This document shows, in pieces, positions 2,283-5,281 of a DNA stretch of 29,291 bases (within the stretch, counting starts at the first letter, position 1; each line of letters begins with the position of its first letter). The DNA is from a virus. Under the pieces are notes generated by a model. It did no database searches and had not been told where the DNA came from. It saw only the letters and a list, made by a program, of their open reading frames with translations. The stretch covers positions 1 to 29,291 of the IMG/VR virus record IMGVR_UViG_3300028840_001973; one strand, written 5' to 3'. The position numbers and the translations under genes were made by a program.

Positions 2283-2655
2283 TGTCGAATAACTCAGGTT
2301 GATCCTTTTCTTGAACAACAGGTTCCCATGCCCATAACCCTGTTACACAAACATTACCTGTGTCGATCGGGTGAGGTAAATCAGGGTGCCATCGTCCATT
2401 ACAATACGCCCTGTCATCTTTGTTACAATGGAATTTTTGCCACTCTTTAATGTTGTTGCCACCTATATATAGGCTTACTTTATCTCCTTCTTTAAGCTCT
2501 CTACCTATTAACTTAGATAGTTTACTCGTCCTTGTTGATGGATTTTCACCAGTCCTGTTCATAAATAGTTCAATATATCCTATTCGTTTCTTTTCCTGGT
2601 GTTTTAATTCTACCTCTCTTATTGTTACAAGGTAAGTTTTTTCGATTGTTTTCAT
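2275..2655 (-). CDS. Hypothetical protein with a C-terminal QxxLF motif, 126 aa
   Basis: The start ATG overlaps the stop of the thymidylate-synthase-like gene by four bases (ATGA at 2655-2652). The N-terminal half is beta-rich (EKTYLVTIREVEL, GYIELFM) and contains GRELKEGDKVSLYIGG. The middle has His and Cys residues (HCNK, YCNGRWH), too irregular to call a zinc site. Residues 119-123 are QPELF, which fits the QxxLF form of the bacterial sliding-clamp-binding peptide and sits in a free C-terminal tail as such motifs usually do. It lies between nucleotide-metabolism and helicase genes. Function unknown; clamp binding is inference. Confidence 0.7.
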   Translation of the reverse strand: MKTIEKTYLVTIREVELKHQEKKRIGYIELFMNRTGENPSTRTSKLSKLIGRELKEGDKVSLYIGGNNIKEWQKFHCNKDDRAYCNGRWHPDLPHPIDTGNVCVTGLWAWEPVVQEKDQPELFDNV

Positions 2656-3377
2656 GTTACTTGATTTTTATTTAACTTATTATTATACAGATGGAGATTA
2701 TTAACTATATGAGTATAGGTCCCCATCTTTAGACCTAACTCTAAGGTGATCTGTTCCTGCAACTTAGAAAAACAATAAGTATCATTCGGAAACCCGAACC
2801 ACAGGTCATTGCTTCTCATCATCACAGTCATATGTAACCGGCTCTCGCGGATACTGAATTGAATGCCTAAGGTACAGATCACGTCCTTATCATTCATGTG
2901 TGCCTTATTGCCATCGTACAGACTTATTACGGCTCTCCTTGTTTTAGGATCTTCCCGCAGTAGTTTAATTACTCCAGGTAGTTGATCTTTCCACCAGTAA
3001 CCATAGTTGCTCATGACGTTGCCGTCTTCGTCCCTGAGAGTATCCCACAGACTTGCACCCGCCTGGATGACTCTTGTAGGGTCCAGTGTTGCGTCCTTAT
3101 ACCATAACCATTCTTGTTCGGCATAAGACTTTGACCAGGCACGCCATTTGGGCAATTCTAAGCGCTTCTCTGGGCGTTTTATCAAAATCGTGGCGTTGTA
3201 TATGGCTTTCGTTTTGGATTCATTAGAACCCATTAGATTGATCCATTTATAAAGCTCCTCGAACGCCTCAGATGCAGTTTCAAAAGTCCAGATACTACAT
3301 TCCGGTACTGCCAAAACCACCTTCTCCTCGTTCAGTTTGAGTTGAATGGATTGACTCGTCTTCGATTGGTGTTGCAT
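2652..3377 (-). CDS. Thymidylate-synthase-fold enzyme, likely dCMP-type (methylase or hydroxymethylase)
   Basis: The 241-residue protein aligns without gaps to E. coli thymidylate synthase from the catalytic cysteine onward: C168 (=Cys146), R188 (=Arg166), D191 (=Asp169), H229 (=His207), Y231 (=Tyr209), with exactly conserved spacing. E89 in EWLW matches the general base Glu58, and R147/R148 match the phosphate-binding arginines. The residue at the position of Asn177 is Asp (D199). In this family Asn recognises dUMP, and Asp at this place marks dCMP hydroxymethylases such as T4 gp42. The protein also stops about ten residues after HLY, lacking the usual C-terminal folate-closing segment. Its start overlaps the dUTPase gene by 83 bases; internal GTG or TTG codons would shorten this. 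A plain thymidylate synthase remains possible because a dUTPase is next door. Confidence 0.88.
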   Translation of the reverse strand: MQHQSKTSQSIQLKLNEEKVVLAVPECSIWTFETASEAFEELYKWINLMGSNESKTKAIYNATILIKRPEKRLELPKWRAWSKSYAEQEWLWYKDATLDPTRVIQAGASLWDTLRDEDGNVMSNYGYWWKDQLPGVIKLLREDPKTRRAVISLYDGNKAHMNDKDVICTLGIQFSIRESRLHMTVMMRSNDLWFGFPNDTYCFSKLQEQITLELGLKMGTYTHIVNNLHLYNNKLNKNQVT

Positions 3378-3783
3378 AATTCACTGGTGTTAAGATAAAC
3401 TGAATGATTTTCTGACCTGCGTATATATCGATCCAGTGCGGACTGACGTTAGTCAGGTGTATGTGAATTTCTCCCTGGTAGTCTTCATCGATTACCTGGG
3501 CACCTACGTATAGTTTATACCTGGTGGCGATCCCGGACTTGTTAAAGGCGATCAAAGCGTGTCCTGGTGGTATTTCTACCTTGATCCCGGACGGTATGTT
3601 GACGCCCTCGTGTGGACCCAACCGGACTGTCTTCGAGTCAAGTCTCATTGATAGGTGTTCGTTCTTGTCCAGGAACTTCTTAATGAAGTTATCCGTGAAC
3701 TCAGGTATAAAAAAGTCGATACCTGCCGACTGTGGTGTGCCCCGTTCAGGGGACTTAACTTTTAAGGTTTTTTTGTATTTCAT
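3295..3783 (-). CDS. dut: dUTPase (deoxyuridine 5'-triphosphate nucleotidohydrolase)
   Basis: All five motifs of the trimeric dUTPase family are present in order: motif 1 AGIDFFIP near residues 20-27; motif 2 NKSGIATR; motif 3 VIDEDYQGEI with the catalytic Asp and the uracil-site Tyr; motif 4 AGQKIIQ; and motif 5 RGEGGFGSTG at the C-terminus. The enzyme converts dUTP to dUMP and pyrophosphate in the cytosol, keeping uracil out of DNA and supplying dUMP. The length (162 aa) is normal for the family, with a modest insertion after motif 1. It lies one base after the cytosine methyltransferase gene and its last 83 bases overlap the thymidylate-synthase-like gene, so the two are probably co-translated. 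Confidence 0.95.
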   Translation of the reverse strand: MKYKKTLKVKSPERGTPQSAGIDFFIPEFTDNFIKKFLDKNEHLSMRLDSKTVRLGPHEGVNIPSGIKVEIPPGHALIAFNKSGIATRYKLYVGAQVIDEDYQGEIHIHLTNVSPHWIDIYAGQKIIQFILTPVNYATPIEDESIHSTQTERGEGGFGSTGM

Positions 3784-3784
3784 A

Positions 3785-4747
3785 TTATAATAATATTAAC
3801 TCGTTTATATCTACTACTGTCATGCTTGTATCGATCACGGGTCTTGCTGACTGGATAGTGTCATGAGCCATTTTACTGATCCACTCACCTGCGGCCGGTT
3901 GTACTGCCTGACCCATCTGAGCAGCCCAGGTCTTAGGGTTGCCTTTGAACTCGTACGTGTCAGGATAGGTTCCTATACGTTTGAGCTCGTTGATCCCTAG
4001 CCACCGGTTTTCAGTCGGATGAATCTTACCATATCCCATAAGTACATTTGAAGGTTTATCAAAATCCATCCTGTAAATACCCAATGAAGGGTGCCTTGGT
4101 TCAATCTCTTTGTCCCAGACTTTAGTCATGTTCTGTCCTGGAAGTAGTTGATCTCCGAACAGGTCCAGGTGAGACTGGCACGTTCTTGAGTATATGTCCT
4201 GCCGTCCAGGGTGTGGTACGTCCTTAATGACATCACCGACGGTGAACGGCCTGGATATAGTGCTCCACTCCAGTTCATATTGACTTAAGATAATAAACAC
4301 TCGCTTACGGTTCTGAGGAACTCCCAGATACTTGGTGTTGTGTTTGAACAGGGTCATCTTGTAACCCTCTTGTTGATACTTATCCAGTAACCATTTACCT
4401 TTTTTTAATATCCCCATGACTGATTCTGACACGAATACCTTAGGTTGGTAGTGCCTTATCAAATGAATACCTAAGTAATGATGACTAAAACGTGGGTCGT
4501 TCTCCTTTTTGTTGGAGTTAGCCACTGAGAACATAGCACAGGGTGGATTGCCAAAGATATAGTCGATCTGACCGTAGTCATTGAACTCCCAAAGGTCCTT
4601 AAATACTATGTGTTCTACAAGTGGGTGGTTTGCCTTGAACGTCTCTGTGTAGTTATGTTCAGGCTCATAATTAGCGAGAACGTCGAAGTGCCATTGTGCT
4701 CCTTCGACGAACCCGCCTGCGTAAGTACAGAATGATATCGCTCTCAT
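3785..4747 (-). CDS. DNA (cytosine-5-)methyltransferase
   Basis: A 320-residue C5-cytosine methyltransferase. Motif I is FCTYAGGFVEGA (SAM binding, residues 6-17). Motif IV is GNPPCAMFS with catalytic C70. Motif VI is ESV at 108-110, a variant of the usual ENV. Motif VIII is GVPQNRKRV at 142-150, and motif X is MGQAVQPAAG near the C-terminus. The target-recognition region between VIII and X is short, so a short recognition sequence is likely. No restriction endonuclease gene is adjacent, which suggests an orphan phage methylase that protects phage DNA against host restriction. It overlaps its upstream neighbour by ATGA. The ESV variant may alter cytosine contact but is not obviously inactivating. 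Confidence 0.93.
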   Translation of the reverse strand: MRAISFCTYAGGFVEGAQWHFDVLANYEPEHNYTETFKANHPLVEHIVFKDLWEFNDYGQIDYIFGNPPCAMFSVANSNKKENDPRFSHHYLGIHLIRHYQPKVFVSESVMGILKKGKWLLDKYQQEGYKMTLFKHNTKYLGVPQNRKRVFIILSQYELEWSTISRPFTVGDVIKDVPHPGRQDIYSRTCQSHLDLFGDQLLPGQNMTKVWDKEIEPRHPSLGIYRMDFDKPSNVLMGYGKIHPTENRWLGINELKRIGTYPDTYEFKGNPKTWAAQMGQAVQPAAGEWISKMAHDTIQSARPVIDTSMTVVDINELILL

Positions 4748-4995
4748 ATATCCTCATCTCCCATTATCCTGTCTTCATACTCCTGGTCAAGGTAAAAATC
4801 TTCCGGAGGGTTAAACCAACTTTCCAATACTGAAATCAGATTATAGTAATCACCTGATGTTGCTTTTTCTAACTCTTCGTTGATCTCATCCTGTGTCCAG
4901 CCGTTAGCCATGGCTTGCTGTTGAAAGTACCCCATAAGGGCAAAGGCATTTCCATCCTGTCCCACTAAGGTACCTGTCATTTTAACTTTTGTCAT
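4744..4995 (-). CDS. Small conserved phage protein, 83 aa
   Basis: An 83-residue protein with the pattern KMTGTLVGQDGNAFALMG, then a helix with NGWTQDEINEELEKATSGDYYNLISVLESWF. I recall this arrangement (GNAF near the N-terminus, ATSGDYD followed by a short helix) as a recurrent unnamed small phage protein found near replication genes; its function is not known. It overlaps its neighbours by 14 bases upstream and four downstream (ATGA), so it belongs to the early operon. The acidic C-terminus (DQEYEDRIMGDEDI) is notable. Confidence 0.75.
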   Translation of the reverse strand: MTKVKMTGTLVGQDGNAFALMGYFQQQAMANGWTQDEINEELEKATSGDYYNLISVLESWFNPPEDFYLDQEYEDRIMGDEDI

Positions 4996-5281
4996 CTTTA
5001 CTATTATTTAATTGTTCCCTATAATCGTTCCACTGTGCTATATAACCTACTGCATCGAACAGGTTATCTTCTTTATGGTGATATGCCTCCCTGGATAGTT
5101 TTAAGGCAATGATGCTCATATAAACCATATCAGGGTGCTTAGCTTCGTCATACTCTTCGTCCATGAGGCCGGCCAGGAGCTTCCCTGCCTGCTTCATGTT
5201 ACGTTGGTAGGGACCATACATGCGGTCCTTCTCTTCAGATCGCTCATAGGCGACCTTGTGTTGCTCTAACAGTATACTCAT
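4982..5281 (-). CDS. Hypothetical protein, DUF6378-like, 99 aa
   Basis: The start ATG overlaps the preceding stop by four bases (ATGA at 5281-5278). The product is all-helical in appearance. Its second half, MSIIALKLSREAYHHKEDNLFDAVGYIAQW, resembles the phage DUF6378 pattern, in which a helix with LxR is followed by a D-N-xxDxxGY motif. That family is common in phage replication and nucleotide regions and some members have been linked to nucleotide pyrophosphatase-like (MazG-type) folds; here this is only a resemblance by eye. The N-terminal third is highly charged. Function unknown. Confidence 0.72.
   Translation of the reverse strand: MSILLEQHKVAYERSEEKDRMYGPYQRNMKQAGKLLAGLMDEEYDEAKHPDMVYMSIIALKLSREAYHHKEDNLFDAVGYIAQWNDYREQLNNSKDDKS

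What the first reader, a model, noticed from the sequence alone, without database searches (positions are those of the whole stretch)
2652..3377. Thymidylate-synthase fold with Asp at the dUMP/dCMP selectivity position, and no C-terminal closing segment
Seen: from C168 the protein aligns to E. coli TS with exact spacing (20 residues to R188, 11 more to D199, 30 more to H229), and D199 stands where TS has Asn177. The chain ends about 12 residues after His229, where E. coli TS has about 57 more. Known: Asn to Asp at this site converts TS to dCMP preference and is a hallmark of dCMP hydroxymethylases. Inference: the enzyme may make 5-methyl- or 5-hydroxymethyl-dCMP, so the phage might carry modified cytosine. 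The neighbouring dUTPase fits dUMP use instead, so the case is open.
Basis: partly seen in the sequence, partly recalled or inferred. Interest (0 to 1): 0.68.

Follow-up and report, generated by a model that had tools for sequence, protein, structure and literature searches.

The report
Phage dCMP hydroxymethylase gene cassette
The gene almost certainly makes the enzyme that viruses such as T4 use to build 5-hydroxymethyl-cytosine into their DNA, so this small phage probably disguises its DNA from bacterial defences; the enzyme is a known kind, but two of its neighbour genes travel with it in a way I did not find described.

Summary
The ORF at 2652-3377(-) is a thymidylate-synthase (TS)-fold protein with Asp at the E. 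coli Asn177 site and no C-terminal tail. It also carries the dCMP-hydroxymethylase signature published for T4 gp42: Asp three before the Cys, SNYG, catalytic Glu, the Arg pair and the deoxy-specific Ser. It lacks the changes seen in the flavin-dependent dCMP hydroxylase of RB69-type phages. In a tree it lies in a strongly supported clade of short Asp-type enzymes, apart from true ThyA. Best reading: dCMP 5-hydroxymethylase (about 0.82), a new member of a known kind.

The neighbouring 'dUTPase' does not argue for dUMP use. It belongs to a variant clade with the uracil-hairpin Gly replaced, which usually sits beside dCMP hydroxymethylases in place of a MazG-type pyrophosphatase (both in 1 of 69 locus patterns). 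Canonical phage dUTPases had no TS nearby (0 of 53 loci of 12 kb or more). A DUF6378 gene completes the cassette: 22 of 22 DUF6378-query loci of 12 kb or more carry a TS. What the dUTPase variant and DUF6378 do is inferred. A C5-methyltransferase homologue with an altered SAM motif in the same operon is unexplained.

The parts
2652..3314 (-). dCMP 5-hydroxymethylase gene (likely start TTG 3314; longest ORF from ATG 3377)
   Evidence: PF00303 1.9e-21; signature residues; clade 99/99; model pLDDT 89.5 and MilA/T4 fold match
2781..2783 (-). codon of Asp199 (T4 Asp179, E. coli Asn177 site)
   Evidence: alignment, invariant in 129 of 129 relatives
2883..2885 (-). codon of Asp165 (T4 Asp145, the water-activating residue, three before Cys168)
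   Evidence: alignment, invariant in 129 of 129 relatives; role from PMC6400193
2874..2876 (-). codon of Cys168, catalytic nucleophile
   Evidence: alignment
3295..3783 (-). trimeric dUTPase-family gene of the variant clade; candidate dCTP/dUTP pyrophosphatase
   Evidence: PF00692 3.2e-19; VGAQVIDEDY with Gln for the hairpin Gly; association and exclusivity
3496..3498 (-). codon of dUTPase Gln96 at the usual hairpin Gly
   Evidence: Gly in 79 of 80 canonical-dUTPase control loci, in 0 of 97 parsed loci with TS and DUF6378
3785..4747 (-). C5-methyltransferase homologue with changed motif I (FCTYAGG)
   Evidence: PF00145 1e-31; alignments
4744..4995 (-). small gene of unknown function in the operon (phrog_1933)
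4982..5281 (-). DUF6378 protein, conserved partner of these hydroxymethylases
   Evidence: PF19905 1e-06; co-occurrence and reverse search

Best explanation
The protein is a dCMP 5-hydroxymethylase. It binds dCMP (Asp199 reads the cytosine; Arg147/148 and Ser189 the phosphate and deoxyribose), attacks C6 with Cys168, takes a methylene group from methylene-tetrahydrofolate (Glu89) and adds water, activated by Asp165 and Ser123, where TS adds hydride. The product, 5-hydroxymethyl-dCMP, would be raised to the triphosphate by kinases and built into phage DNA. The variant dUTPase next door most likely hydrolyses dCTP and/or dUTP, feeding dCMP to the enzyme and lowering competing dCTP, as T4 gp56 does. 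Shown here: sequence, residues, predicted fold, clade and gene association. Inferred: enzyme activity, modified DNA, and the roles of the dUTPase variant and DUF6378.
For: All T4 gp42 signature residues tested are present: E89, W111, S123, Y125, R147, R148, D165, C168, R188, S189, N190, D191, D199, H229, Y231 (roles from PMC6400193). Best PDB sequence matches are MilA CMP hydroxymethylase (2.9e-18) ahead of any TS; a family profile scores T4 dCMP hydroxymethylase first. Fold search: MilA TM 0.81. Tree: within an Asp-type clade at 99/99; Asn-type ThyAs form a separate clade at 100/98. Clade mates L009 and L019 lie with a carbamoyltransferase, the pairing shown to give carbamoyl-hydroxymethyl-cytosine in PMC8670742. 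Several contigs hold both this enzyme type and a classical ThyA, so it is not their dTMP source.
Against: No activity or virion nucleoside data. The Arg59, Lys28 and Arg177 folate contacts of T4 are not conserved. No hexose or carbamoyl transferase was recognised in the window, so the hydroxymethyl group would stay bare or the partner is unrecognised or lies outside this contig. The C5-methyltransferase homologue in the operon fits unmodified cytosine better.
Confidence: 0.82

Rival explanations
1. A dCMP methylase, as described for phage Xp12: same substrate, but hydride instead of water is added to the methylene, giving 5-methyl-dCMP.
For: Asn-to-Asp at 177 alone turns TS into a dCMP methylase (Liu and Santi, Hardy and Nalivaika, cited in PMC8670742). 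A 5-methylcytosine phage would also fit a C5-methyltransferase homologue nearby.
Against: Asp165 at -3 and Ser123 match the hydroxymethylases; ThyA has Leu and Pro there. No C-terminal tail, which TS uses to seal the site for hydride transfer (PMC6400193). The Xp12 enzyme itself could not be fetched, so its residues are untested.
Confidence: 0.08
2. A flavin-dependent dCMP hydroxylase (AfhB, RB69 ORF048 type), giving 5-hydroxy-dCMP.
For: Same fold, size and Asp at the 177 site; PDB 9iqc and 9iqu are among the better fold matches.
Against: RB69 ORF048, nearly identical to 9iqc, has lost the catalytic Glu (Phe), Trp82 (Ala), Ser94 (Thr), Asp145 (Glu), Asp171 (Asn) and Tyr218 (Phe); the window keeps all six.
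Confidence: 0.05
3. A true thymidylate synthase on dUMP, fed by the neighbouring dUTPase.
For: Pfam and NCBIfam name it TS; a dUTPase-family gene overlaps it.
Against: Scores 81.6 bits against a cut-off of 327 for the closest TS equivalog model; Asp at 177; no tail; separate clade from ThyA. The dUTPase is of the variant type, and canonical dUTPases showed no TS within 8 kb in 53 control loci.
Confidence: 0.03
4. On the neighbours: dUTPase variant and DUF6378 sit beside the hydroxymethylase only because these phages share ancestry, and have no part in the same pathway.
For: DUF6378 hits collapse to 1-2 clusters at 70% single linkage. Variant dUTPases occur in contigs with no TS found (6) or only a classical TS (1). 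A distant DUF6378 in phage Quesadilla has no annotated TS near it.
Against: The partners occur with two distant hydroxymethylase clades. MazG and dUTPase replace each other (1 of 69 patterns has both, about 12 expected if independent). Control loci found by another early gene have three of these genes together or none (3 against 77 of 80).
Confidence: 0.4

Closest known systems
T4 gp42, deoxycytidylate 5-hydroxymethylase (PDB 1b49, 6a9a)
   Same: Fold, short C-terminus, all signature residues tested, dCMP-type Asp
   Different: About 25% identity and a separate clade; T4's dCTPase partner gp56 is unrelated to the trimeric dUTPase variant here
Bacteroides phage BF503P2 gp42 (annotated deoxycytidylate 5-hydroxymethyltransferase) and clade mates L009, L019
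   Same: 41% identity, same clade, variant dUTPase nearby
   Different: They lack DUF6378 and have a carbamoyltransferase; the window has DUF6378 and a C5-methyltransferase homologue
MetaGPA modified-contig thymidylate synthases (PMC8670742)
   Same: Asp at position 177 as marker of modified cytosine; PRA-PH/MazG-type, deaminase and carbamoyltransferase neighbours
   Different: dUTPase, MazG and DUF are not named in its main text; the window has the dUTPase variant in place of MazG
MilA CMP hydroxymethylase (PDB 5b6d, 5jnh)
   Same: Best sequence and fold match; Asp-type, water-adding enzyme
   Different: MilA has Lys133 and Ala176 and prefers CMP; the window has Arg and Ser, as in enzymes that use deoxynucleotides
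AfhB / RB69 ORF048 dCMP hydroxylase (PDB 9iqc, 9iqu)
   Same: TS fold, about 235 aa, acts on dCMP, Asp at the 177 site
   Different: Has lost the folate-chemistry residues that the window keeps

Membership tests
dCMP 5-hydroxymethylase (T4 gp42 type) | Asp at the cytosine-reading site (T4 Asp179) | tested here: met
   D199
dCMP 5-hydroxymethylase (T4 gp42 type) | Asp (or Glu) three before the catalytic Cys (T4 Asp145) with Ser (or Thr) at T4 Ser94 | tested here: met
   D165 and S123
dCMP 5-hydroxymethylase (T4 gp42 type) | Folate chemistry residues: catalytic Glu60, Tyr96, Trp82 | tested here: met
   E89, Y125, W111
dCMP 5-hydroxymethylase (T4 gp42 type) | No TS-type C-terminal tail | tested here: met
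   12 residues after H229
dCMP 5-hydroxymethylase (T4 gp42 type) | Makes 5-hydroxymethyl-dCMP; 5hmC in virion DNA | not testable with these tools
   needs enzyme assay and mass spectrometry
Thymidylate synthase ThyA | Asn at E. coli 177 and C-terminal closing segment | tested here: not met
   Asp199, no tail; below the NCBIfam equivalog cut-offs
CMP hydroxymethylase (MilA type) | Lys and Ala at MilA 133 and 176 (ribose preference) | tested here: not met
   Arg147 and Ser189
Flavin-dependent dCMP hydroxylase (AfhB / RB69 ORF048) | Loss of catalytic Glu, Trp82 and Tyr218 seen in the solved enzyme (my comparison, not a published rule) | tested here: not met
   all three kept in the window
Canonical trimeric dUTPase (neighbour 3295-3783) | Gly before the [VI][IV]D of motif 3 (uracil hairpin) | tested here: not met
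   Gln96; Gly in 79 of 80 canonical controls
Canonical trimeric dUTPase (neighbour 3295-3783) | dUTP-specific activity | not testable with these tools
   needs assay on dUTP and dCTP

The most novel reading that the evidence does not exclude
The operon is a compact cytosine-replacement cassette of a kind not yet described: a trimeric dUTPase-fold protein with an altered uracil hairpin serves as the dCTP pyrophosphatase, standing in for T4 gp56 or MazG, and DUF6378 is a dedicated partner of phage dCMP hydroxymethylases. Less likely still (about 0.08), the C5-methyltransferase-fold protein with its changed SAM motif acts on 5hmC in DNA rather than on cytosine.
Probability: 0.3. Interest if true: 0.65.

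Novelty: new member of a known kind. Interest (0 to 1): 0.45.

Why it matters
It adds a small, uncultured phage to those predicted to replace cytosine, and gives a residue test that separates folate-dependent hydroxymethylases from the newly solved flavin-dependent hydroxylases. If the partner genes do what their association suggests, a family filed as dUTPase would be re-read as dCTP pyrophosphatase in many phages, and DUF6378, for which I found no functional study, would get its first testable role. That would help predict which uncultured phages resist restriction enzymes and CRISPR nucleases.

Tried and rejected
Truncated or decayed gene: rejected, relatives share the short C-terminus and the active site is whole. 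Close relatives by exact peptide patterns from the window alone: none; DNA-level relatives of the operon in cultured phages: none. DUF6378 as a MazG- or gp56-type pyrophosphatase: no profile match (MazG against gp56 gave none either, so this test is weak), and its model (pLDDT 73) had no PDB fold match. Whole-phage 'relatives' search: not available for a virus record. Xp12 record: not held under the accession tried. C5-methyltransferase as a usual part of such cassettes: rejected, PF00145 in 2 of 39 contigs; a search for relatives of the window's variant returned only two loci, with ordinary enzymes and no TS. Literature on a trimeric dUTPase-fold dCTPase: nothing in the titles and abstracts returned, few of which I opened.

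Full report
WHAT IS THERE. The ORF at 2652-3377(-) codes for 241 aa and matches Pfam Thymidylat_synt at 1.9e-21. The missing tail is shared by the family. The first 21 codons are probably not translated: AlphaFold gives residues 1-28 low confidence, relatives begin later, and a TTG at 3314 follows AGGAG at 9 nt.

WHICH ENZYME. The T4 dCMP-hydroxymethylase ternary-complex paper (PMC6400193) names Asp145, three before Cys148, with Ser94 and Tyr96, as what separates hydroxymethylation from TS chemistry, and Asp179 as the cytosine reader. The window has all of them: D165, S123, Y125, D199. Across 129 different relatives both Asp residues are invariant and the Ser is kept in 128. E. coli ThyA has Leu, Pro and Asn at the -3, Ser94 and Asp179 sites. 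The TS of SPO1-like phage Goe26 has Asp at -3 but Asn at 177, as expected if -3 marks water addition and 177 marks the base; that its product is 5-hydroxymethyl-dUMP is my inference from SPO1. Arg147 and Ser189 match deoxy-specific enzymes rather than MilA (PMC5175136).

A NEW RIVAL, TESTED. The fold search returned, besides MilA (TM 0.81), T4 and TS structures, the 2025 entries 9iqc and 9iqu, described as a riboflavin-dependent monooxygenase with dCMP and FAD and as phage HY126 dCMP hydroxylase AfhB. RB69 ORF048 is nearly identical to them. Compared with T4 gp42 it has lost the catalytic Glu, Trp82, Ser94, Asp145, Asp171 and Tyr218; the window has lost none of these. So the window enzyme looks folate-dependent.

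PHYLOGENY. In a 48-row maximum-likelihood tree the window falls in a 24-row clade of short Asp-type enzymes (99/99) with BF503P2 gp42 and the carbamoyltransferase-linked L009 and L019. T4 gp42 is in a second Asp-type clade with L240 and L249. All Asn-type ThyAs form one clade with E. coli (100/98). Some long branches make the order between these clades unsure.

THE CASSETTE. Loci with such enzymes (149 from IMG/VR plus the window and annotated phages) form 94 groups at 90% identity of the enzyme. The most frequent neighbours of known or partly known kind are a MazG/PRA-PH pyrophosphatase (72 groups, typically overlapping by 4 nt), DUF6378 (62), a trimeric dUTPase (18), dCMP deaminase (15) and a carbamoyltransferase (7). 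MetaGPA (PMC8670742) already reported TS with PRA-PH, deaminase and carbamoyltransferase domains on modified contigs; the words dUTPase, MazG and DUF do not occur in its main text. Among 69 locus patterns with enough flank, 47 have MazG only, 16 dUTPase only and 1 both. The contig with both (L017) has an ordinary dUTPase. L027 instead has a homologue of T4 gp56 dCTPase (1.8e-18) directly upstream of the enzyme.

REVERSE TESTS AND CONTROLS. Searching with DUF6378, 22 of 22 loci of at least 12 kb have a TS, with dUTPase (13) or MazG (9). Of the 55 short TS genes in all DUF6378-query loci, 54 have the full hydroxymethylase signature and the other is a fragment; four further TS genes there are classical ThyAs. 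Searching with the dUTPase variant, 31 of 36 loci of that size have a TS. Searching with a YqaJ-type nuclease from the same module, at 57-82% identity, 77 of 80 loci have none of these genes and 3 have TS, MazG and DUF6378 together. Searching with the ordinary dUTPase of L017, 79 of 80 have Gly at the hairpin site, and outside the query's own contig none of 53 loci of at least 12 kb has TS, MazG or DUF6378. In cassettes with TS and DUF6378 the hairpin residue is Cys, Ser, Lys, Gln, Ala or Glu, never Gly. In the dUTPase superfamily this hairpin region sets nucleobase specificity (PMC4827122), so a change of substrate is plausible, but this is inference.

LIMITS. DUF6378 hits fall into one or two clusters at 70% single linkage, so they are few independent events. 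Six variant-dUTPase contigs of 10-55 kb have no TS and one of 160 kb has only a classical TS. Croceibacter phage P2559Y has the variant (VGACVIDEDY), but its next gene is a shortened TS-like protein without the catalytic region, and it carries two C5-methyltransferases with a different motif I. A distant DUF6378 relative in Mycobacterium phage Quesadilla lies between polymerase and primase with no annotated TS.

THE C5-METHYLTRANSFERASE HOMOLOGUE. It directly precedes the dUTPase in the operon. Its motif I reads FCTYAGG where the HaeIII enzyme has LFSGAGG. Another phage with an Asp-type TS (L007) has HTYMGG and the same NPPCA motif (26% identity). The only two other PF00145 hits in 39 hydroxymethylase or cassette contigs also look divergent there. 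Why a phage that fills C5 of cytosine would keep such a gene is open.

VERDICT. A convincing new dCMP hydroxymethylase, by a rule already in print. The partner genes are the more interesting part and remain hypotheses.

Noticed in passing
window 3785-4747(-); L007 18003-19112; L468, L469: C5-methyltransferase homologues in phages with Asp-type TS have unusual SAM motif I (CTYAGG, HTYMGG, PLIGGS) though the PC motif is kept; possibly a changed reaction on modified cytosine.
   Followed up: partly
window 4982-5281(-): DUF6378 (PF19905) co-occurs with dCMP hydroxymethylases on the same strand within a few kb in most loci; no function found in the literature held.
   Followed up: partly
L476 9001-9965 (Croceibacter phage P2559Y): Variant dUTPase directly followed by a shortened TS-like protein (P2559Y_0036) that lacks the catalytic region, in a phage with two C5-methyltransferases: looks like a decayed hydroxymethylase.
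   Followed up: partly
L176, L181, L187, L203, L263, L269, L291, L296, L297, L299: Contigs that carry both an Asp-type hydroxymethylase and a full-length classical ThyA.
   Followed up: partly
L002 12109-12915 (Bacteroides phage BF503P2 gp36): A second, very divergent Asp-type TS paralogue that lacks the catalytic Glu, in the same genome as gp42.
   Followed up: no
L101 3083-3976 and relatives in 28 of 94 groups: A PLP-dependent-enzyme-like protein (weak PALP match) directly beside the hydroxymethylase; could be a further cytosine-modifying step.
   Followed up: no
L243 7147-8004: A TS with Asp at 177 but Val at -3 and Asn at the Ser94 site, placed next to ThyA on a long branch: a candidate dCMP methylase rather than hydroxymethylase.
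   Followed up: no
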